A DNA stretch of 52,788 nt from a virus. The notes under the pieces are model-generated. The model saw nothing but the letters and a program-made list of their open reading frames with translations. It did not search any database and was not told the origin of the DNA. The position numbers and the translations under genes were made by a program. Location of the stretch: positions 1 to 52,788 of IMG/VR virus record IMGVR_UViG_3300042516_004385; one strand, given 5' to 3'. Position 1 is the first letter of the stretch; every line of letters starts with the position of its first letter. Below, one piece after another: positions 282 to 44,442 of this stretch.

Positions 282-1092
282 GTTTATAGAAAAAGGACAT
301 ATCTACACCTCAGTTATACCTGACAACATTAAGTGGTTGGGTATAACTACTTTGGTGGGACATCTGCATGAGAAGTTCAATGCAAAGGAACAATCTATCA
401 AGTCCTCTAATAGAAAACCTACTGCAAAGTATCCAAACAAATGGTATGGTTTACCTCCTACTGAGATACAGAATGCATGGAATGCAGAGGGTCAAAGATC
501 TGTAGAGCTTGGTAGTTGGTACCATAAGATGAGGGAAGATGCTTTGTACGAGAAAGGGGCAACTAATGTGTTCCGGCCAAAAGTAGAAGATGGTATTAAG
601 TATGCACCTGATCAGGTCCTGCTTAATGGTATCTATCCTGAACATATGGTCTATCTGAAATCAGAGGGGATATGTGGTCAGTCTGACTATGTAGAGGTAA
701 GAGATGCAAAGATCTTTATCAAGGATTACAAGACATCTAAGGAGATTAAGCGTAACAGCTTTGTAAATTGGGAAGGTATAAAAAAGATGATGTTGACACC
801 GGTTAATCATCTTGAAGATTGTCACTTTTACCACTATGCTTTACAGCTATCTCTGTACATGTACGTCATGCTTAGACATAATCCTAATCTCAGCCCGGGT
901 ACACTGATCATTGAGCACGTCAAGTTTGAAATAGAAGACGAGGATAAGTACGGATACCCTATTTACAAAAAGGATGAGGCAGGAAACTTTATTGTAAAAG
1001 AGATTGAAGAGATAGAACTTCCTTATTTGAAAAAAGAAGTTCACGCAGTAATCAACTGGTTAAAAACAAATAAACAAAAATTGATCAAATGA
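274..1092 (+). CDS. RecB/Cas4-like PD-(D/E)XK nuclease
   Basis: The 272-aa protein shows the ordered motifs of the RecB-type PD-(D/E)XK nuclease fold. There is a Gly-x3-His motif near residues 80-84. A Gly-Gln-Ser-Asp motif follows with the metal-binding Asp at about 138. A second motif, Asp-Tyr-Lys, lies at 151-153, and a Gln-x3-Tyr-type helix at about 191-197 follows it. This family cuts or trims DNA ends and in crAss-like phages sits with replication and recombination genes. No helicase domain is fused to it, and its size is normal for a stand-alone nuclease. It overlaps the preceding gene by 8 bases and the following glycosyltransferase by 4 (ATGA). Roles in recombination, DNA-end processing or host-DNA degradation are all possible; the sequence does not decide between them. 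Confidence 0.75.
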   Translation: MIKFIEKGHIYTSVIPDNIKWLGITTLVGHLHEKFNAKEQSIKSSNRKPTAKYPNKWYGLPPTEIQNAWNAEGQRSVELGSWYHKMREDALYEKGATNVFRPKVEDGIKYAPDQVLLNGIYPEHMVYLKSEGICGQSDYVEVRDAKIFIKDYKTSKEIKRNSFVNWEGIKKMMLTPVNHLEDCHFYHYALQLSLYMYVMLRHNPNLSPGTLIIEHVKFEIEDEDKYGYPIYKKDEAGNFIVKEIEEIELPYLKKEVHAVINWLKTNKQKLIK

Positions 1093-2165
1093 AATTACAG
1101 TTTGTAGTACAGCAGAAATCAGGTATTGCTTATCATAGGATTGTTACTCCCATGGAGTTTATGAAATGGGATGAAAACGAAGAAGCAGAGATGCTATGGA
1201 TTGTTCAGGATGAGCATAAAATAGATGGAGATGTACTATTGTACAGTAAGTTTATTTGGACCCAGGTTGATCAGCTCAAAGCAATCAAAGAGAAAGGTAC
1301 TAAAATCATTGTAGACGTAGATGACTCTTGGGATCTGCCGGTGTCTCATCCTTTCTATGATATTTGGAACCAGAGAGGTAGTGCACAGAAAGTAATTGAC
1401 AATATACAAGTTGCAGATCTTGTTATCTGTACAACACTAAAGCTTCAGGAGAAAATAAGAAAGTACAATAAGAATACTGTAGTAATTCCAAATGCACTTC
1501 CTTTTGGTTATGAGAACTATGTACCAAAACCGGTACCACATGATAAGATGACTTTTATTTACGTAGGAGGTTCTTCTCATTTGGCTGACATTGAGATGTT
1601 AAGAGGGAAGTTTAAAAAGATGGGTGGGGAACCGTTTATTAAAAACAATGCAGAGTTTGTTCTGGCAGGATATGAACCAACAACAGTTCCTCGTTACCTA
1701 ACTAAAGAAGACTTTGAAAACAAAAAGCCTACAATGATACAGGTACGTGATGTGTGGGATAAGATGGCTTCAGTCTTTGCAGAAACAGGCTCATCAAGAA
1801 TACTTCCTTCTACGGATCTTGAAGAGTACATTGATTACTATGATCAGGCAGATGTTGCACTGGTACCATTACTGAATACTGATTGGAACAATCATAAGAG
1901 TGAACTTAAGATCATTGAGGCCGGCTGTAAAGGAATACCGGTAATTTGTTCAAAGGTTCTTCCTTACAGTACCCTTTATGGTAAGGAGGGTATTATGTGG
2001 GTAGAGACTCCTGATGATTGGATCAAGCATATAAGGTACTGTATCAAAAACCCTAACTTTGTAAAAGACATGGGTCAGAAGATGAGCGAATGGGTAAAAA
2101 GGGATTATGATCTTCTTAAGTGGAATGAAGTAAGGAAACAAGTAATTAAATCGGTTCTGAAATGA
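1089..2165 (+). CDS. GT-B type glycosyltransferase (family 4-like)
   Basis: A 358-aa protein with two Rossmann-like halves. Visible signs are an Ile-Pro-Asn-Ala-Leu-Pro segment between the halves (133-138), a Tyr-Val-Gly-Gly turn at about 158-161 opening the second half, and a C-terminal block (about 256-288) with a Lys-Ser-Glu-Leu-Lys, Glu-Ala-Gly and Gly-Ile-Pro-Val-Ile arrangement. That block is the nucleotide-sugar binding signature of GT4-like enzymes. An Asp-rich stretch (76-84, Asp-Val-Asp-Asp) is in the N-terminal half. It probably transfers a sugar from an activated donor to a phage structural protein, phage DNA or host surface glycan; the acceptor is not visible. It starts the local group of four glycosyltransferase genes, overlaps the nuclease gene by 4 bases and shares ATGA with the next small gene. 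Confidence 0.8.
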   Translation: MKLQFVVQQKSGIAYHRIVTPMEFMKWDENEEAEMLWIVQDEHKIDGDVLLYSKFIWTQVDQLKAIKEKGTKIIVDVDDSWDLPVSHPFYDIWNQRGSAQKVIDNIQVADLVICTTLKLQEKIRKYNKNTVVIPNALPFGYENYVPKPVPHDKMTFIYVGGSSHLADIEMLRGKFKKMGGEPFIKNNAEFVLAGYEPTTVPRYLTKEDFENKKPTMIQVRDVWDKMASVFAETGSSRILPSTDLEEYIDYYDQADVALVPLLNTDWNNHKSELKIIEAGCKGIPVICSKVLPYSTLYGKEGIMWVETPDDWIKHIRYCIKNPNFVKDMGQKMSEWVKRDYDLLKWNEVRKQVIKSVLK

Positions 2166-2338
2166 TAGAAGATATTATAGGAACAATGACTCCTTATATT
2201 GTAAAGGGTAAAAAATTATATGAAGAAGAGGATGTTAAAAGAGCTCTTGCAAAGATGCTCAAGATGATAACCTCTTCTGTTATAGTTAAGCCTGTAGAAC
2301 CGTCTGAACTTAACGAATACCCTGAAGTAACATGCTGA
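2162..2338 (+). CDS. small hypothetical protein (58 aa)
   Basis: A 58-residue frame starts with an ATGA overlap on the stop of the glycosyltransferase gene and ends overlapping the next gene's ATG by 7 bases, a spacing typical of coupled phage genes. It has a short amphipathic N-terminus, a Lys/Glu-rich middle and a Val-Lys-Pro-Val-Glu-Pro tail. No domain is recognised. Support comes from coupling and from filling an otherwise empty 166-base gap. Confidence 0.55.
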   Translation: MIEDIIGTMTPYIVKGKKLYEEEDVKRALAKMLKMITSSVIVKPVEPSELNEYPEVTC

Positions 2339-2565
2339 GAGAAATTATAAAAATATGGCTACTAAAAAGATCATTAATAAAGCACCTTGATATTGCTGAT
2401 TATCTTTTATGGTTACGAGACAGTGTTACTCTTGACCAAGGAACTATGGAAGAAGTTATTGAAGAAAAAGACAATTTAAGACTTGAAGCTGAAGCACATA
2501 AAAGAGCAGCAAGAAGAATCCGTAAAATACTAAACAAGTACAACAATGTTAATCAATCTATTTGA
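2332..2565 (+). CDS. small helical hypothetical protein (77 aa)
   Basis: A 77-aa protein that is predominantly charged and probably alpha-helical. The second half (from about residue 40) is rich in Glu, Lys and Arg with heptad-like spacing and suggests a coiled coil. It overlaps both neighbours, by 7 bases upstream and 20 bases downstream. No family is recognised. The position, two genes ahead of the terminase cluster, would suit a small DNA-packaging or regulatory factor, but nothing in the residues proves it. Confidence 0.55.
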   Translation: MLREIIKIWLLKRSLIKHLDIADYLLWLRDSVTLDQGTMEEVIEEKDNLRLEAEAHKRAARRIRKILNKYNNVNQSI

Positions 2566-3094
2566 TGTTGAGGATCGTAAACTTACCCCTAGCCAGGCAT
2601 GTTATGCTATACCCTGGCTTGAGAGAATAATGACACTGTACCCTAATGATTACATACAGATCTACAAGTACATCTTCTTTACAACCTGTCCTGATGGTAC
2701 AATCAATCCTTATGTCAACCTACCTGAGGATGAGAAAGAAGACGTGGTTATGGCAGACCTGGCACCACTTAAGTTTTCTCTTGAGGATGATGTTATAGTA
2801 GATACAGTAAACAAGTGCAAGAAGCTTTACGAGACACCGGTGCTCAGAACATTCTTGGGAGCCAAGAAGATGTTGGATAAGGTGGGCCGGTTTCTGGATG
2901 ATGAAGAGATTACTACTGGTAAGGATGGTAATTCCAGTGAGATACGAGCTATGCTTAAAGAACTCTCTACCTATTGGGAGAACTACAATAAACTTGAGAA
3001 TGTTTTGAAGGAAGAACAAGCCAAAGTAAAAGGTGATCGTGTAATACCTTTCCATCAACAAGCCGGATACAAAGAAACTAAACAGTATGAGTAA
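2546..3094 (+). CDS. conserved packaging-region protein, small terminase candidate
   Basis: A 182-aa protein with a hydrophobic, Pro/Tyr-rich N-terminal half (a Trp-Leu-Glu-Arg-Ile-Met helix and a Tyr-Ile-Phe-Phe-Thr-Thr-Cys-Pro segment) and a helical C-terminal half ending in a basic tail. Similar-looking proteins, with Met-Leu-Ile-Asn-Leu-Phe-Asp at the start and Glu-Thr-Pro in the middle, are remembered from Bacteroidota phages next to terminase genes, but no search could be run. Size, helical content and location make it a reasonable candidate for the small terminase subunit, although no helix-turn-helix is evident. It is followed by a glycosyltransferase gene overlapping it by 8 bases. 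Confidence 0.5.
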   Translation: MLINLFDVEDRKLTPSQACYAIPWLERIMTLYPNDYIQIYKYIFFTTCPDGTINPYVNLPEDEKEDVVMADLAPLKFSLEDDVIVDTVNKCKKLYETPVLRTFLGAKKMLDKVGRFLDDEEITTGKDGNSSEIRAMLKELSTYWENYNKLENVLKEEQAKVKGDRVIPFHQQAGYKETKQYE

Positions 3095-3665
3095 TAAAAA
3101 ACCAATAGTAACATTTGTAGTCATTACCTATAAAGAACAATGGGAACCATACATGTTCATAGGGATGCTCAAATGCATGAAGAATCCTAACTGGAAAGCT
3201 ATTGTTTGGCACGATGGACCTAACCCTGAAATGAGAGCCATATTTGAAGCTTTTGGTGATGAGAGGATACAGTACATAGAAAACGAAGAGAACAAGGGTT
3301 CCTGGGGCTGTTATAATCGTATAGATGCACTGAAACTGGTAGATACAGAGTTTGTGGTACAGACTACTATCCAGGAATATTACATGCCGGTGTTTGTAGA
3401 TGTCATAGAACAATTAAGCAGTAATGATCTGATCTACTGGCCCTGTATCCACCATTCCTTCGGATACAATATCATAAATGCAGAACCTGTCCGTGGCAGA
3501 ATGGATTGGAGTAACTTTGCACTGAAGTCACACATTGCAAGAAAGGTAGGAATCAATCATCCTGATGCATACATGGCAGATGGTCTGTTTATTGAGGATG
3601 TAATGAAATCAAACCTTGTAAAGAAAAAAATAAGAGTTGAAAAAGTACTAAACATAAAGAACTGA
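3087..3665 (+). CDS. short GT2-like glycosyltransferase without DxD motif
   Basis: A 192-aa GT-A fold protein beginning with the usual first strand (Val-Thr-Phe-Val-Val-Ile-Thr-Tyr) and a Trp-His-Asp-Gly strand at about 41-44, as in family 2 glycosyltransferases. At the place where the metal-binding Asp-x-Asp is expected, after Thr-Glu-Phe-Val-Val, it reads Gln-Thr-Thr-Ile-Gln-Glu-Tyr-Tyr (92-99). It is paralogous to the gene at 4415, which shares the substitution, the Asn-Pro-Asn-Trp and the Asp-Trp-x-Asn-Phe segments. It is shorter than typical 250-300-aa enzymes. The change may mean a metal-independent mechanism or a non-catalytic binding role. It overlaps the next gene by one base (TGATG). 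Confidence 0.7.
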   Translation: MSNKKPIVTFVVITYKEQWEPYMFIGMLKCMKNPNWKAIVWHDGPNPEMRAIFEAFGDERIQYIENEENKGSWGCYNRIDALKLVDTEFVVQTTIQEYYMPVFVDVIEQLSSNDLIYWPCIHHSFGYNIINAEPVRGRMDWSNFALKSHIARKVGINHPDAYMADGLFIEDVMKSNLVKKKIRVEKVLNIKN

Positions 3666-4402
3666 TGAAAGAAAAAATAGCCATCTGTCTTATAGTAAAA
3701 GATGAACCGGAAATGCTTCCTGAGTTTATAGATTATTATTTAAAGTTAGGGGCAGATTCTATTATTATTTACGATAATGATTCTACAGAACCGGTTGTTT
3801 CAGAAAACCCTAATGTAATAGTACATAGATGGCCGTCAGTATGGCCGGGCAATCAAACAAAGGCTTACTATGATTGTGCAGTAAAGTACAAGAATGAGTA
3901 TAAGTGGATTGCCTTTTTTGATACAGATGAATATCTGATCCTTAAAAAGCATAGTGACATTAAAGCATTTCTTGCCGATTATGATCAGTACCCGGGGGTT
4001 GGAATTAACTGGTTATGTTTTGGTTCTTCTGACATAGAAATACACAGTTCACATAAGGATTATTACAAGCACTGTAGATTTACCAATCCAATCAATACTC
4101 ATATAAAATCTATTGTGAAACCTGAAAATCTTACTATACCTGCACCTGATCCTCATTTTGTTGTAAAAGGAACTATAGATACAAATTTTAATGAAATATA
4201 TGGACCTTTCTCTGATTTTAAAAGTGATATAGCTTACATAAAACATTGCATTATGAGAACAAAAGAAAATTACATTTCTAAAATAAAAAAAGGCGATGTT
4301 AATGTTTTTCAAAAAAATGCAAACTTTAGAACAGAAAGTAAATGGGATGATCATTATCGAACTTTTAATGAGTGTCAAGATGAGAAAAAAATTTGGTTGT
4401 AA
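3665..4402 (+). CDS. GT92/DUF23-like glycosyltransferase
   Basis: A 245-aa protein with the hallmark beginning of GT92-type enzymes: a Cys-Leu-Ile-Val-Lys-Asp-Glu strand-loop at about 8-14, then Phe-Ile-Asp-Tyr-Tyr-Leu-Lys-Leu-Gly-Ala-Asp and Ile-Tyr-Asp-Asn-Asp-Ser (35-40). The metal-binding Asp-Thr-Asp-Glu is intact at 86-89. It probably adds a sugar from a nucleotide-sugar donor; the acceptor is unknown. Unlike its two GT2-like neighbours it keeps the catalytic acidic motif, so it may be the active partner of the group. Base composition shifts near 4040-4070: the first half contains several CCGG words and the second half none and is very A/T-rich, suggesting a recombination junction in the gene. 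Confidence 0.75.
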   Translation: MKEKIAICLIVKDEPEMLPEFIDYYLKLGADSIIIYDNDSTEPVVSENPNVIVHRWPSVWPGNQTKAYYDCAVKYKNEYKWIAFFDTDEYLILKKHSDIKAFLADYDQYPGVGINWLCFGSSDIEIHSSHKDYYKHCRFTNPINTHIKSIVKPENLTIPAPDPHFVVKGTIDTNFNEIYGPFSDFKSDIAYIKHCIMRTKENYISKIKKGDVNVFQKNANFRTESKWDDHYRTFNECQDEKKIWL

Positions 4403-4414
4403 AATAGACAAAAA

Positions 4415-4996
4415 ATGAAAGTAACATTTGTAGCATTGGCTTTTAATGAAGTTTTCAGTAACCGACCCTTGCTTGATTCTTTAATAATGCAAAGTAACCC
4501 AAATTGGGAGCTGATCATTTATCATAATGGTGCATCTGCAGAAATGAAATCTTGGGCAAATAGTTATAATGATCCAAGGGTAAGATACTATGAAACAGAA
4601 GTCAATAACAATAATGCTTGTTTGAACAGATTAGATGCAATAAACAATCTTGTTACTACTGAATACATAATACAAACATCTATTCAGGATTACTATCTTT
4701 CTTGGACAGTTGAACTTATTCTTAAAAGGTTATCTGAAACAAAAGCTGATTTTTGTTATTGGGATTCCATTAATCATTTATGTGGACATGCAATATTGAT
4801 TACAAAATTAGAAATGTCACATATTGATTGGGGTAACTTTTGTATTCCAATAGAGATAGCTAAACAAATAGGTATTCCTGGTATTCAACCAAGCATAAGA
4901 AGAGAAGATGATTGGTACACTGTAGAAAAAGGACTACAAATGAACCTGTTTAAAAATATAACAAAGATAAATAATGTACTTACGATTCACAACTAA
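4415..4996 (+). CDS. short GT2-like glycosyltransferase without DxD motif (paralogue)
   Basis: A 193-aa paralogue of the protein at 3087, alignable over nearly its full length. Shared features are the opening Val-Thr-Phe-Val strand, Asn-Pro-Asn-Trp (28-31), Asn-Arg-Leu-Asp-Ala, and Thr-Glu-Tyr-Ile-Ile followed by Gln-Thr-Ser-Ile-Gln-Asp-Tyr-Tyr (87-94) in place of the usual Asp-x-Asp. An Asp-Trp-Gly-Asn-Phe segment lies in the last third. The gene is strongly A/T-rich with no CCGG words, unlike the terminase just behind it, which points to separate acquisition. It is the last gene before the terminase. A sugar-transfer or sugar-binding role is inferred from the fold only. Confidence 0.68.
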   Translation: MKVTFVALAFNEVFSNRPLLDSLIMQSNPNWELIIYHNGASAEMKSWANSYNDPRVRYYETEVNNNNACLNRLDAINNLVTTEYIIQTSIQDYYLSWTVELILKRLSETKADFCYWDSINHLCGHAILITKLEMSHIDWGNFCIPIEIAKQIGIPGIQPSIRREDDWYTVEKGLQMNLFKNITKINNVLTIHN

Positions 4997-21405: not shown

Positions 21406-21693
21406 ATGAAAATAGATATCAATAAAGCTTTTGTTGCAGTTACTTCAGTATTTATTGCATTCCTTAGCTGGTTTGGAAAGATTACATATGACAAACTCAC
21501 AAAGATCGAAACTGATGTACAAGCTTTATTGGTTGCATCTGGGATTGATAGAACTGAAATACAGAATCTTAAGGATAGAATAGATAGTGCTCCCGGGTCT
21601 AAAAAGCCAGTGAGTTACGTACATTACCACAAAGAGTTTATACTGCCGGATGAAGTTCTCCCCAAGAAGAAAAAATTGATATTCAAATCATGA
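21406..21693 (+). CDS. small membrane protein, holin candidate
   Basis: A 95-aa protein with one hydrophobic segment at about 8-24 (Ala-Phe-Val-Ala-Val-Thr-Ser-Val-Phe-Ile-Ala-Phe), then a short coiled-coil region (about 26-60) and a basic C-terminus. One N-terminal membrane segment, short length and the following two membrane or coiled-coil genes fit a holin or holin-associated protein in a lysis cassette. The next gene overlaps it by 4 bases. It could instead be an unrelated membrane-anchored coiled-coil protein. Confidence 0.45.
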   Translation: MKIDINKAFVAVTSVFIAFLSWFGKITYDKLTKIETDVQALLVASGIDRTEIQNLKDRIDSAPGSKKPVSYVHYHKEFILPDEVLPKKKKLIFKS

Positions 21694-22046
21694 ACAAGGT
21701 AGCTGTAGTAGTTTTTATAGGAATAGTTGGTGTCCTTTTGGCAATCATTGCATTTTACCAGAAGCCGGCCAAGTTTGAGGGTATTACAGCAAAGGAACTA
21801 TCCGACAGCCTGGCTGCCCACGACAAGGTAAGAGACCAGAAACTATCTATCCTAAGGATAAAGTACGAACAGGATTCTGTGAAGTTGACAAACATGAGAA
21901 GCCAGATAGATCAGGTACCTGATCTCGTGAAACAAATAAACAAGAAGTATGATAAAAAAAGGGATCACATTAATACTCTTTCTGTTGACGAGCAAGTTGG
22001 CCATATGTCAGACTGGTTATCCAAAGATAGTAGTCTTGGAGAATAA
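21690..22046 (+). CDS. inner-membrane spanin-like protein (118 aa)
   Basis: A 118-aa protein with an N-terminal membrane segment (about 4-22, Val-Ala-Val-Val-Val-Phe-Ile-Gly-Ile-Val-Gly) and then a charged, coiled-coil-prone periplasmic-type domain. This is the plan of an inner-membrane spanin, which spans the periplasm and fuses the inner and outer membranes after the peptidoglycan has been cut. The last 98 bases (21949-22046) are used by the next gene in another frame, as in classical overlapping spanin pairs. Function is inferred from architecture and arrangement, not from sequence similarity. Confidence 0.5.
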   Translation: MNKVAVVVFIGIVGVLLAIIAFYQKPAKFEGITAKELSDSLAAHDKVRDQKLSILRIKYEQDSVKLTNMRSQIDQVPDLVKQINKKYDKKRDHINTLSVDEQVGHMSDWLSKDSSLGE

Positions 22047-22380
22047 TACTGTAGTAGTTATAACAAAAGCACAGATGAAGAAGATTAACAATCTTCATCT
22101 CCACTACCAGGAATGTAAAGAAACAAACACACTTCTCGAAAGTACACTGGATAGTTGCAAAGCAGTCTTTGCAATCTACGACACTATGCTCATCAACCTT
22201 AAGGATCAAAGGATTATCCTGCAAGAAGGAGCCAAAGAATCCAAGAAGGTTATTAGCCAGATGGTAGAACTGGATGAGAAAAAGAACAAGAAGATCCGGA
22301 ACCTTACTCTCCAAAACAAACTTCTCAAAGCCGGTGGAATACTGGCCCTTGCTGCTGCAGCAATCTTTATGATTATTTAG
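21949..22380 (+). CDS. overlapping spanin-like protein with N- and C-terminal hydrophobic ends (143 aa)
   Basis: A 143-aa protein with a signal-like N-terminus (Leu-Ile-Leu-Phe-Leu-Leu, then Leu-Ala-Ile-Cys), a long charged coiled-coil middle, and a hydrophobic C-terminal segment (about 128-143). A lipoprotein signal plus a C-terminal membrane segment would match a unimolecular spanin, but Ile before the Cys departs from the usual Gly/Ala/Ser, so lipidation is doubtful. It overlaps the gene at 21690 by 98 bases in a different frame. In context it completes a probable three-gene lysis group. Confidence 0.5.
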   Translation: MIKKGITLILFLLTSKLAICQTGYPKIVVLENNTVVVITKAQMKKINNLHLHYQECKETNTLLESTLDSCKAVFAIYDTMLINLKDQRIILQEGAKESKKVISQMVELDEKKNKKIRNLTLQNKLLKAGGILALAAAAIFMII

Positions 22381-40329: not shown

Positions 40330-43300
40330 ATGGCCAAAATTAAAATAAAGGCAGTTCCTAAAATGCAAACTGGTGGATATGCTCCACTCACTTCTCAGGA
40401 AAGAGATGCCTGGGAAAGAATGCAGTCTGCTGCCTATGAACAAGGATTTTTAGGTAGTGAGCATAATAGACAACCAGGTGTTGACTTTATGAGACAATAC
40501 GGAGTTGATCCTAACAGATTGTCTGCATACCAAGCTGATCTTCTTGAGCAAAGAAATGTTGCTCCATGGGGAAGACCTGGTGCTTACATGGCCAAGGGTC
40601 CTGAAACAACTTTTAGTAATGTTGATGCCTTTTACGGTCCCAAGACTGCAAGAGAGAGATATGGACAATATTCAATTAAAGAAGGAAACAAACCCGCTGT
40701 AAATTTTGGTACAGATTGGAAAGCGGCAACTGCTTATAGTAATCAACTGGAAGCTGCTCGTCAAGCTGAATATAAAGACTACGGTAAACCAGAGGCTAAT
40801 ATAAACTACCAAGCTCCGGAAGCTCCGGTTACTACACCAGCCCCAAGAGCTACAGGTTTAGCTGCTACAGGTTTTCCTACCCGGGAAGAGGCTGTTGCAA
40901 AGTACAAGGCAAGAAAAGCATCTGGCCAAGAACTACCAAGCAATTACTTTACCGGTAAAGGAAATGCAGACTATTCTATTGATAGTTTGAGAAGTACAGG
41001 GAAAGGTTCTGATGAGTTTGCATATGGTGGTTCTACAAAAAAGATCCGTATCAGTGGTGTACCGACAATGGCTACCGGTGGATATGCTAATAAAGATGCA
41101 AGTCATGGTTACGGTAATCAACAACTTGGTCAAAGTTATGCATTGAACAGATTCTGGAATACTCCTGCCGGGTATCCTTTTACTACCTCTAAAGTTAATC
41201 CTTATGGAAAGGTAGGCAATACTTTACCTGAGGCTAAGGATGGTGGTGATATCAATGCTGAAAAGCAAGAAATGGTACTTGGTGACTTTGATCAGGATGG
41301 ACAACAGGAATTGATGAATGTTGATGGACCTCCTCACACAGAAGGTGGTAAGGATGTCAATGTTCCATCTAACTCATTTGTATTTTCTGATACAAAAGAT
41401 CTGAAGATAAAAGATCCTCAGATCCTTGCCATGTTTGGAATGGCACCAAAGAGAGGTGGTTATACACCGGCACAGATAGCTAAGAAGTACGATCTGAACA
41501 AGTTCAAAAAGATCCTTGATGATCCTAATGCGGATGATGCATCTAAGAAGACTGCTCAGTTGATGAATGACAACTATCTGTCTAAACTTAACAGGCTTGC
41601 ATCTGTACAAGAATCAATGAAGGGTGCAATGGGTATGGAGTATCATGATCCACAAAGAGGTCAGGTACCGGCTGAAGAAGCACCTGTACAAGAAGTAGGT
41701 AATATGGATCAAGGTGGTACAGAAATGATGCAACCTGAAGAAATGATGATGGAATACGGAGGTGCTCCTAAGTACCAAACTGCCGGTATTTTTAATTCAA
41801 AATACACAAATTTTTTAAATTCTGCAAAACAGGATTTGCAAAAACTGTACCCGGGCAAAAGTGTAAACATTGTAGAAACAAGTACATACAGACATCCTTC
41901 AACTCAAGCAGGTTTGGTTAAAAAAGGTGCATCTACTACAGATGTATCTTTACATGCAGTAAATGCGGCTAAAGATTTTCAGATACTTGTAAACGGTAAA
42001 CCTGTAAATGATCCTGAATTATATCACGATGTTCTTTGGAAAAATGCAGAAAGAAATGGTCTTTACCATTTAGACCCTAAAGGTTTTGGAGCAAAAGATC
42101 TTGGTCATATTGGGGTAATTGAAGAAGATGGAAAAAGTACTTATGGAAGACTGATTGATGCATACCCTCAGATAAAAAATACTAAGGAGTTTAATGCACT
42201 TTTTGAACATGTAAAAAATAGAGTAGGTTCTGGAAATCCAACACCTAAAGAGTTATTGGTTTACAATCAGTTACAAGGACAGCGTTATGAACCGGAGCTT
42301 TGGTATAAACCAATGTATCCTGCTACAGAAAATGCTACATCCCCTTTACAAGAAACAGTTACAAAAAGTAAAGTTTCAAGGCCGGTAAATCTCCCTATCA
42401 AAAAAGGAATACTGACTGCTCGTGAAGTTCCTGTACCACCTGTTTTACAAACAGATACTGATAATAAAAATAGTAATGTGAATATAAATGATTGGGTGAT
42501 GTCTGAATATAAAGGTCAAATACAAAGACCTACAATGCAGTATGCCGGACTATACCCAACTACATTACAATCTTTAGGTACTGTTCCTAATTGGCAAGAA
42601 GCTATTCCTGTAAGCCAATGGACTCCAAATACTAATGCAAATCAACAAGTTGCTAAAACTGTACCTTCTCCGTATAAAATGCAACCTTCCGTTGCAAAAC
42701 AGCAACAAAATCCTGAATTGCCATATAATGAGTTTTTGGATATAGTTGGTAGAAATCCAAATTTGGATAGATTACCAATAACAGGGCTATCTTCTCCTTA
42801 TTCTTTAGAAGAATATCCTGTACCATGGGCAGGTACAAATTACCAAATGCAAGGTCAAGAAGTATTGCCCCTTCGTCCTCTTTCTGTTTCGCCTCAGACA
42901 TCTGCAGCAACTGCTGTAAATGTTCCCCCAATGACACCTTTTGTTTCTACTGATACAGAAGCACTTGTTACAAACGAAAACAAAAAGAAAAATAGAACAG
43001 CTAAACAAAGAACGGGGATTTTTGCAAACCCTAATCTGTACGGTGATGTAATGAATCTTGCTCAGATGGCACAGCTTAGAAAATTTGTACCATATGAACC
43101 GGTACCACAGGCTGTTATTCCTGAAACAGTATTTATGGATCCTACCCGGGCAATAGCTGCTCAACAGGAGATGGCAAGGAATGCTATGGAAATGGCCGGT
43201 CAAAGTGCCAATGCAAGAGCTGCAAGAGCAACAGGTCTGGCATACCAGGGAGAGGCAGGAAAACAAGCTGCAGATACAATAGCACAGTATGCTAACCAGA

Positions 43301-44442
43301 ATGTTGCTATAGCTAACCAGGCAAATGCACAAGCTGCACAGATAACCAACCAATTAATGGCAATGGAAGCTAACAGGCTGGCCGAACTTAATAAGGGCAA
43401 CTTCTTGGCTGCTAGGGATTATCAAAGGGAAATGGGTAGACTTCAAGCTGAATGGGCTGACAGGAAGCAAAAACAGCACGATACTGCAGTTAAAACAGCG
43501 TGGCTTAATAAAACATCTCCATACTTTAACATTGATCCTTATACACAAATGCCGGTGTTTAAACCCGGTGATGCAGAAGCAAGGTATTGGAAAGATATTA
43601 AAGGTGGAAGCGATGGTAATTTCCCAGACATGATTTCAAAATTGATGTCTGAGAAAGGGTGGTCATTTGAACAAGCTCTTGCTGCTCTTACTAAGGGTAC
43701 AGGTACTGTAAAAACTCAACATACAGATCCTGTTACAGGGGATAAAACAACCAGTACAGGTACTGCTGCAGGTAAATATGGAGGTATGATGAGGTATGGT
43801 GGTTCTCACATGGCAATGCCGGAAATGGCACCTTACTATCAAATAGGAGGAAACTTTATACCACTTGCAGGTGGCCCTGACGTATCATTTAATGCAGTAG
43901 ATAATACTGCCTATACAATGCCTGTACAAAGTACAGAACCTTTGGAGATAGAAACAGAACAGTCACCTTTAAAAGGTTTGTCGTCAAAAAAGGCAAGCAG
44001 AAGAGATATTGCTACAATAACAAACAACCCGGGCAATATGATCTATAGTCCTAAGTTTGGTAAGTTATTTGGAGCAGTAGACTCCGGTATTAAACAAAGG
44101 GATGGTAAAGGTCACTTTGCTATGTTCCCGGATCTCAACACAGGTTTTAAAGCTTACCAGACACAACTCTTTGGTGAAGTAGATGGTGTTATGAAATCAA
44201 ACTACTACAAGAAAGATACTACTGTTAACCAAGCTTTAAAGACTTGGAGCAATAATGGTTATGATGGTAGTATCTACCCTGAGGTAAAAAACAAGAAGCT
44301 TTCTGAACTTACAATGGCAGAAAGAAATGAACTTGCTAAGAGGCAGATAAAACATGAATCAGGTGATATGTATAAGCTGCTCCGTGAAAGAGGTGTGTTT
44401 AAAAAATATGGAGGTAGTGCCTTACAAAAGTTCATAAGATAA
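40330..44442 (+). CDS. Gly-Gly-motif protein with M15-type peptidase and muramidase-like domains (1370 aa)
   Basis: A 1370-aa modular protein. Motifs of the Met/Tyr-x-x-Gly-Gly type recur along it (Met-Gln-Thr-Gly-Gly at about 12-16, Ala-Tyr-Gly-Gly near 232, Tyr-Gly-Gly at about 477, several around 1155-1180 and near the end). A domain at 300-430 has Val-Phe-Ser-Asp-Thr-Lys at about 351-356 and a Gly-Gly-Tyr-Thr-Pro-Ala-Gln segment. A domain at about 490-650 resembles M15 D-alanyl/L-alanyl-D-glutamate peptidases, with Ser-Leu-His542-x6-Asp549 and Gly-His593-Ile. The C-terminal part (1226-1345) has Asn-Asn-Pro-Gly-Asn-Met and Gly-His-Phe-Ala-Met-Phe-Pro, as in phage virion-associated muramidase or transglycosylase domains. 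It probably opens peptidoglycan during DNA entry. Confidence 0.68.
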   Translation: MAKIKIKAVPKMQTGGYAPLTSQERDAWERMQSAAYEQGFLGSEHNRQPGVDFMRQYGVDPNRLSAYQADLLEQRNVAPWGRPGAYMAKGPETTFSNVDAFYGPKTARERYGQYSIKEGNKPAVNFGTDWKAATAYSNQLEAARQAEYKDYGKPEANINYQAPEAPVTTPAPRATGLAATGFPTREEAVAKYKARKASGQELPSNYFTGKGNADYSIDSLRSTGKGSDEFAYGGSTKKIRISGVPTMATGGYANKDASHGYGNQQLGQSYALNRFWNTPAGYPFTTSKVNPYGKVGNTLPEAKDGGDINAEKQEMVLGDFDQDGQQELMNVDGPPHTEGGKDVNVPSNSFVFSDTKDLKIKDPQILAMFGMAPKRGGYTPAQIAKKYDLNKFKKILDDPNADDASKKTAQLMNDNYLSKLNRLASVQESMKGAMGMEYHDPQRGQVPAEEAPVQEVGNMDQGGTEMMQPEEMMMEYGGAPKYQTAGIFNSKYTNFLNSAKQDLQKLYPGKSVNIVETSTYRHPSTQAGLVKKGASTTDVSLHAVNAAKDFQILVNGKPVNDPELYHDVLWKNAERNGLYHLDPKGFGAKDLGHIGVIEEDGKSTYGRLIDAYPQIKNTKEFNALFEHVKNRVGSGNPTPKELLVYNQLQGQRYEPELWYKPMYPATENATSPLQETVTKSKVSRPVNLPIKKGILTAREVPVPPVLQTDTDNKNSNVNINDWVMSEYKGQIQRPTMQYAGLYPTTLQSLGTVPNWQEAIPVSQWTPNTNANQQVAKTVPSPYKMQPSVAKQQQNPELPYNEFLDIVGRNPNLDRLPITGLSSPYSLEEYPVPWAGTNYQMQGQEVLPLRPLSVSPQTSAATAVNVPPMTPFVSTDTEALVTNENKKKNRTAKQRTGIFANPNLYGDVMNLAQMAQLRKFVPYEPVPQAVIPETVFMDPTRAIAAQQEMARNAMEMAGQSANARAARATGLAYQGEAGKQAADTIAQYANQNVAIANQANAQAAQITNQLMAMEANRLAELNKGNFLAARDYQREMGRLQAEWADRKQKQHDTAVKTAWLNKTSPYFNIDPYTQMPVFKPGDAEARYWKDIKGGSDGNFPDMISKLMSEKGWSFEQALAALTKGTGTVKTQHTDPVTGDKTTSTGTAAGKYGGMMRYGGSHMAMPEMAPYYQIGGNFIPLAGGPDVSFNAVDNTAYTMPVQSTEPLEIETEQSPLKGLSSKKASRRDIATITNNPGNMIYSPKFGKLFGAVDSGIKQRDGKGHFAMFPDLNTGFKAYQTQLFGEVDGVMKSNYYKKDTTVNQALKTWSNNGYDGSIYPEVKNKKLSELTMAERNELAKRQIKHESGDMYKLLRERGVFKKYGGSALQKFIR

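What the first reader, a model, noticed from the sequence alone, without database searches (positions are those of the whole stretch)
21406..22380. Candidate lysis cassette with an out-of-frame overlapping spanin pair
Three small genes encode an N-terminal membrane protein with a coiled coil, an inner-membrane spanin-like protein, and a protein with a signal-like start and a C-terminal membrane segment. The last two overlap by 98 bases in different frames. Spanin overlap is known in Caudoviricetes of Proteobacteria; for phages of Bacteroidota spanins are poorly known. The third protein combines features of two-component and one-component spanins.
Basis: partly seen in the sequence, partly recalled or inferred. 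Interest (0 to 1): 0.6.

Follow-up and report, generated by a model that had tools for sequence, protein, structure and literature searches.

The report
Overlapping spanin-like lysis gene pair
A virus related to the gut crAss phages carries two overlapping genes that most likely break the outer membrane of its bacterial host at the end of infection; the second protein lacks the lipid anchor that such proteins are defined by, and the same layout sits next to the lysis enzyme in several unrelated phages of Bacteroidota.

Summary
Three co-directional genes, A (95 aa), B (118 aa) and C (143 aa), lie in a crAss-like virus record; B and C overlap by 98 bases in different frames. B has one N-terminal membrane helix and a long periplasmic helix. 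C has a signal peptide, a small beta-hairpin, one ~100-residue helix and a hydrophobic tail ending at its last residue.

The pair is real: the overlap is conserved in four relatives, is constrained in both frames, and codon-shuffled controls give about 0.01 such pairs per window. In two gut phages the homologous pair starts at the end of an amidase (endolysin) gene. Two unrelated flavobacterial phages (lotta8-2, P2559S) have the same layout there; P2559S is on the published list of 'spanin-less' phages. In a close relative one N-anchored protein replaces the pair.

So this is most likely a spanin-like pair. C is neither an o-spanin nor a u-spanin as defined: it has no lipobox and fits the Bacteroidetes Q-rule for signal peptidase I. 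Its tail also lacks the basic end of true u-spanins. How it reaches the outer membrane is unknown. No function has been tested. New variant of a known kind.

The parts
21406..21693 (+). ORF A, 95 aa: N-terminal membrane segment (residues 8-24) followed by a charged, probably helical region; candidate holin or lysis accessory
   Evidence: homologs in L002 (69%) and L003 (45%) in the same place; no PHROG or Pfam family above noise
21690..22046 (+). ORF B, 118 aa: i-spanin-like; N-terminal membrane helix 3-23, long helix 34-96, short helix 99-112
   Evidence: AlphaFold2 pLDDT 79; homologs L002, L006, L004, L007
21949..22380 (+). ORF C, 143 aa: signal peptide, beta-hairpin 26-29/35-38, one helix 40-142 ending in a hydrophobic tail
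   Evidence: AlphaFold2 pLDDT 75; homologs; dN/dS 0.30 outside the overlap
21949..22046 (+). 98-base out-of-frame overlap of B and C
   Evidence: conserved in L002 (98), L006 (92), L004 (143), L007 (146)
21981..22028 (+). Codons of the conserved B C-terminus (SVDEQVGHMSDWLSKD), which also code much of the signal peptide and the first mature residues of C
   Evidence: alignments A5 and A7
21949..22008 (+). C signal peptide, predicted signal peptidase I cut AIC|QTG (Bacteroidetes Q-rule), not a lipobox
   Evidence: rule in PMC5837995, lipobox consensus in PMC6139136
22018..22089 (+). Most conserved part of mature C (YPKI...T.V..T..Q...IN), predicted beta-hairpin and start of the helix
22327..22377 (+). 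C-terminal hydrophobic tail of C, residues 127-143, basic flank before it and nothing after it

Best explanation
B and C are the outer-membrane disruption pair of the phage lysis cassette, working like a two-component spanin of overlapped gene architecture. Inferred steps: B is held in the inner membrane by its N-terminal helix and projects a helical rod into the periplasm. C is exported by Sec, cut by signal peptidase I before a glutamine (which the host would cyclise), and forms a long helical rod with a conserved beta-hairpin at its N-terminal end and a hydrophobic membrane tail at its C-terminal end. The two accumulate side by side, are held apart by the cell wall, and after the endolysin degrades the wall they collapse and join or break the two membranes. 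Shown here: both genes are real, conserved together and dual-coding; the layout recurs directly behind endolysin genes. Not shown: lysis activity, B-C binding, and which membrane the tail of C enters.
For: Homologous B/C pair begins at the end of an Amidase_3 gene (Pfam E 3e-18) in Bacteroides phage BS162P1 and in human faecal phage MT835482, whose amidase is 53.5% identical. Same layout without detectable sequence similarity directly behind the amidase of Flavobacterium phage lotta8-2 and behind the annotated endolysin of Croceibacter phage P2559S; a Q-rule version of the pair scan finds exactly these seven pairs (window, L002, L006, L004, L007, L018, L032), all in the +1 frame, with 1 hit in 100 shuffled windows. 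In L006 the pair follows small genes that look like proteins with several membrane helices. In L003, a relative 75% identical in the next gene, the slot holds one N-anchored protein instead; proteins of that shape follow the endolysin in B124-14, AS73P1, BKO1-TP3, BS-TP4, phi38:1 and P2559Y. B-like proteins of BS162P1 and lotta8-2 match the PHROG 'Rz-like spanin' weakly (E 0.001 and 0.008). AlphaFold2 gives B a membrane helix plus long helix plus short helix.
Against: No endolysin was found beside the pair in the window or its crAss-like relatives: PF01520, PF01510 and PF13539 give nothing, PF00959 only at 16.7 kb of the L002 contig, far from the pair; the window is probably a fragment. C lacks the lipobox that defines an outer-membrane spanin part. 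No periplasmic cysteine is kept across pairs (none in either BS162P1 protein), although 507 of 528 known two-component spanins have one (PMC6139136). Family matches to known spanins are below significance. No experiment.
Confidence: 0.75

Rival explanations
1. C is an ordinary lipoprotein (o-spanin or u-spanin) with an unusual lipobox, and B is an accessory or i-spanin; nothing is new about the anchor.
For: Four of six C proteins have cysteine just before the conserved glutamine (AIC, AIC, VIC, SFC). Clear lipobox u-spanins with a C-terminal helix occur in phages of Bacteroidota (11b, RAP44, 6H, FCL-2).
Against: The residue before the cysteine is I or F, outside [LVI][ASTVI][GAS]C and unlike the deviations reported (AWAC, LNGC, FVGC; PMC6139136). 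BS162P1 and lotta8-2 have serine there, and BS162P1 C has no cysteine at all. The glutamine after it is invariant, as the Q-rule predicts.
Confidence: 0.12
2. B and C are membrane-active but not spanin-like: a holin/antiholin or regulator pair, or an envelope protein that blocks superinfection.
For: Small membrane proteins without significant spanin family matches; no endolysin beside them in the window.
Against: The pair comes in addition to holin-like genes in BS162P1, MT835482 and L006, and takes the slot where another Bacteroidota phage keeps a lipobox u-spanin (11b gp49 directly follows its endolysin).
Confidence: 0.09
3. B and C are virion parts (injection or tail proteins), since they lie among structural genes.
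For: They sit between tail-fibre-like genes and a conserved gene of unknown function in the structural block.
Against: Signal peptide plus membrane segments, and the amidase neighbours in the other phages; genes annotated as lysis genes also sit among structural genes in crAss001.
Confidence: 0.04

Closest known systems
Two-component spanins, overlapped architecture (such as P2; Rz/Rz1 type)
   Same: N-anchored i-spanin-like gene whose end is overlapped out of frame by an exported partner that runs on beyond it; B topology; next to the endolysin in the named phages
   Different: Partner has no lipobox and has a C-terminal hydrophobic tail; no conserved periplasmic cysteine
Unimolecular spanins (T1 gp11; candidates in Bacteroidota phages 11b gp49, RAP44 gp03, 6H gp36, FCL-2 gp19)
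   Same: Exported protein with a C-terminal membrane helix, late lysis region
   Different: C has no lipobox, keeps an N-anchored partner gene, is predicted mainly helical, and its tail has the basic flank before it and no basic end (T1: net -1 before, RKHEKKEA after)
Single N-anchored proteins behind the endolysin of Bacteroidota phages (PHROG 26448, 14010, 25644; also crAss001 gp27 and the L003 234-aa protein)
   Same: Occupy the same slot; probably the same task
   Different: One gene, N-terminal anchor, C-terminus often of beta character, no exported partner found

Membership tests
i-spanin (B) | N-terminal membrane helix with periplasmic, largely helical domain | tested here: met
   hydropathy in 6 of 6 pairs; AlphaFold2 model of B
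i-spanin (B) | Sequence membership of a known spanin family | tested here: inconclusive
   window B none; relatives and look-alikes match PHROG 'Rz-like spanin' at E 0.0013-0.0076
Two-component spanin, overlapped | o-spanin gene starts out of frame inside the i-spanin gene and extends beyond it | tested here: met
   98-base overlap, conserved in relatives, +1 frame in 7 of 7
o-spanin (C) | Lipobox and N-terminal lipid anchor for the outer membrane | tested here: not met
   AIC|Q, VIC|Q, SFC|Q, SFS|Q, ASS|Q; no cysteine in BS162P1 C
Two-component spanin | At least one periplasmic cysteine in the pair | tested here: inconclusive
   window C has Cys 56 and 70, the BS162P1 pair has none; 507 of 528 known systems have one
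u-spanin (C) | Lipobox plus C-terminal membrane helix in one protein | tested here: not met
   C-terminal hydrophobic segment present, lipobox absent
Spanins in general | Gene adjacent to holin/endolysin | tested here: inconclusive
   met in BS162P1, MT835482, lotta8-2 and P2559S; not seen for the window itself, whose endolysin was not found
Spanins in general | Required for outer-membrane disruption, rescues an RzRz1 defect | not testable with these tools
   needs genetics

The most novel reading that the evidence does not exclude
Phages of Bacteroidota have two-component spanins in which the outer-membrane partner is not a lipoprotein but an ordinary signal-peptidase-I product that reaches the outer membrane through its C-terminus: by a hydrophobic helical tail (window, BS162P1, lotta8-2) or by beta-strands like those of outer-membrane proteins (P2559S). 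The survey authors said that other topologies and anchors, including an outer-membrane protein as o-spanin, were possible but not considered (PMC6139136).
Probability: 0.35. Interest if true: 0.75.

Novelty: new variant of a known kind. Interest (0 to 1): 0.6.

Why it matters
How phages of Bacteroidota open the outer membrane is largely untested. The main spanin survey lists Bacteroides phage B124-14 and Croceibacter phages P2559S and P2559Y as spanin-less (PMC6139136), and a 2025 survey that required a lipobox for o-spanins concluded that Bacteroidetes phages use unimolecular spanins only (PMC12596118). Both screens would miss a Q-rule partner without a lipobox. A simple scan (N-anchored ORF overlapped in the +1 frame by a Q-rule signal peptide, behind the endolysin) finds such pairs, including in P2559S, and makes the question testable in cultured phages.

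Tried and rejected
PHROG and Pfam scans of A, B and C gave nothing significant. Single-protein searches of IMG/VR and of the phage collection with window B or C found no relatives except a weak BS162P1 hit, which was the key lead. Two genome-contig scans with C profiles gave no prophage copies; a DNA pattern over the conserved overlap found only the two known contigs. Searching bacterial relatives is not possible from a virus record. Foldseek of the C model against viral structures gave no significant match, as expected for a long helix. Amidase neighbours in DP-2017a, DP SC and Lak phages showed no pair with these criteria. crAss001 has no such pair; its gp27 is an N-anchored protein of the single kind. 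P2559Y, 6H, FCL-2 and T1 have no such pair either. Structure jobs could use only three sequences, because database records are not accepted. Considered and dropped: reading C as a lipoprotein because of its cysteine at position 20.

Full report
What is there. The window is a 52.8 kb virus record from IMG/VR. TerL, portal, major capsid and several virion genes match PHROG families, and the portal aligns to Crassvirales and to crAss-like phages of Cellulophaga and other Bacteroidota, with Leptolyngbya phage Lbo-JY46 closest at 31%. A ends 4 bases into B; C starts 98 bases before the end of B, in its +1 frame.

Are they genes? Yes. L002 (a contig whose next gene is about 75% identical to the window's) keeps A, B and C with the same 98-base overlap. 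L006 keeps B and C with a 92-base overlap. Two phages outside the crAss-like group, Bacteroides phage BS162P1 (a weak hit, E 0.1; then) and human faecal phage MT835482, have homologs with overlaps of 143 and 146 bases. C residues Y24 P25 K26, T34, V36, T39, Q42, I46, N47 are invariant in all five; those from T34 on lie outside the overlap in the window. Between window and L002 the overlap is far more conserved than its surroundings, and synonymous change is depressed there in both frames. Recoding and shuffling controls put chance at about 1% for this window.

Anatomy. AlphaFold2 models from only three sequences (so moderate confidence) give B a membrane helix 3-23, a helix 34-96 and a short helix 99-112, and C a signal helix, a two-strand hairpin and a single helix of about 100 residues running into the hydrophobic tail. 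All C proteins have glutamine after a small residue at the predicted cut, as the Bacteroidetes Q-rule describes for signal peptidase I products (PMC5837995). None has a lipobox. The tail is unlike that of T1 gp11: T1 has a very hydrophobic helix followed by a basic cytoplasmic end, while C tails are less hydrophobic, carry basic residues before the helix and stop at or within one residue of its end. That is unusual for a type I inner-membrane protein and is the main reason to keep an outer-membrane location open; it is inference.

Context. In BS162P1 the order is small membrane protein, Amidase_3 endolysin, B, C, tail-sheath-like gene; the deposited annotation omits B and starts C too late. 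MT835482 has the same order. Flavobacterium phage lotta8-2 has amidase, then an N-anchored 119-aa protein overlapped by 80 bases by a 136-aa protein with signal ASS|Q and a C-terminal tail; a search with that protein finds only its own close relatives. Croceibacter phage P2559S has an annotated endolysin, an N-anchored 124-aa protein, and a 185-aa out-of-frame partner overlapping it by 167 bases, with signal ALS|Q and a C-terminus that reads, by eye, like outer-membrane beta-strands (GGRLSFAIW); only its last part is annotated. P2559S is on the published list of spanin-less phages. Other Bacteroidota phages fill the slot differently: proteins with a lipobox, a C-terminal helix and a basic end in 11b, RAP44, 6H and FCL-2, or one N-anchored protein of about 180-230 aa in B124-14, AS73P1, BKO1-TP3, BS-TP4, phi38:1, P2559Y and the window's relative L003. 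The replacement of the pair by such a protein in L003, between an A homolog and the next conserved gene, is an argument from position for the same job.

Interpretation. The most likely reading is a lysis pair that does what a spanin does. What is shown is gene reality, co-conservation, layout and neighbourhood. What is inferred is lysis function, complex formation and the location of C. By the formal definitions C is neither an o-spanin nor a u-spanin, because the lipobox was tested and not met; 'works like a spanin' remains the best explanation, 'is a spanin family member' cannot be claimed for C. B fits the topology of an i-spanin but has no significant family match.

What is known. [quoted passage not shown] The Crassvirales review says only in general terms that spanins are among the late genes (PMC10136315). 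Two North Sea flavophages were annotated with unimolecular spanins (PMC8776804). Porphyromonas phages were given candidate spanins, and the same paper notes phage proteins that obey the Q-rule, but it does not join the two (PMC10367356). In the open-access literature searched I found no description of Q-rule, non-lipoprotein overlapped partners; subscription papers were not searchable, so this is not proof of novelty.

Limits. No SignalP, DeepTMHMM or multimer prediction was available; the window's own endolysin was not found; the number of independent lineages is small (the homologous family, lotta8-2, P2559S).

Noticed in passing
L032 27300-28065 (Croceibacter phage P2559S, NC_018276): Overlapped pair behind the endolysin of a phage published as spanin-less; the partner has a Q-rule signal and an outer-membrane-protein-like C-terminus, and only its last part is annotated.
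   Followed up: partly
L003 5179-5883: A 234-aa N-anchored protein replaces B and C in a close relative; similar single proteins (PHROG 26448, 14010, 25644, all 'unknown function') follow the endolysin in B124-14, AS73P1, BKO1-TP3, BS-TP4 and phi38:1, and may be an inverted kind of one-component spanin.
   Followed up: partly
L028 28129-28593, L029 1209-1787 (-), L039 29452-30006 (-), L040 11415-11798: Lipobox plus C-terminal helix u-spanin candidates in Flavobacterium phages 11b, 6H, FCL-2 and Riemerella phage RAP44, annotated as hypothetical proteins.
   Followed up: partly
L004 11739-12414 (BS162P1 OP172706): Deposited annotation omits the B gene and starts the C gene inside its signal peptide.
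   Followed up: yes
L017 2510-3545 (Porphyromonas phage029a_Kyudai3): A gene annotated 'spanin' overlaps what looks like an interrupted amidase gene; the name may be an artefact of a rearranged endolysin.
   Followed up: no
window 40330-44442: 1370-aa late protein with stretches that by eye resemble a peptidase and a lysozyme-like domain; no Pfam match at E 0.01. Could be a virion-borne wall hydrolase.
   Followed up: partly
L010 (Leptolyngbya phage Lbo-JY46, PP438436): The nearest portal relative is recorded as a cyanobacterial phage although most of the other matches are phages of Bacteroidota; the host may really be a co-cultured Bacteroidota bacterium.
   Followed up: no
window 1089-4996: Several genes in a row upstream of the terminase that look like glycosyltransferases by eye.
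   Followed up: no
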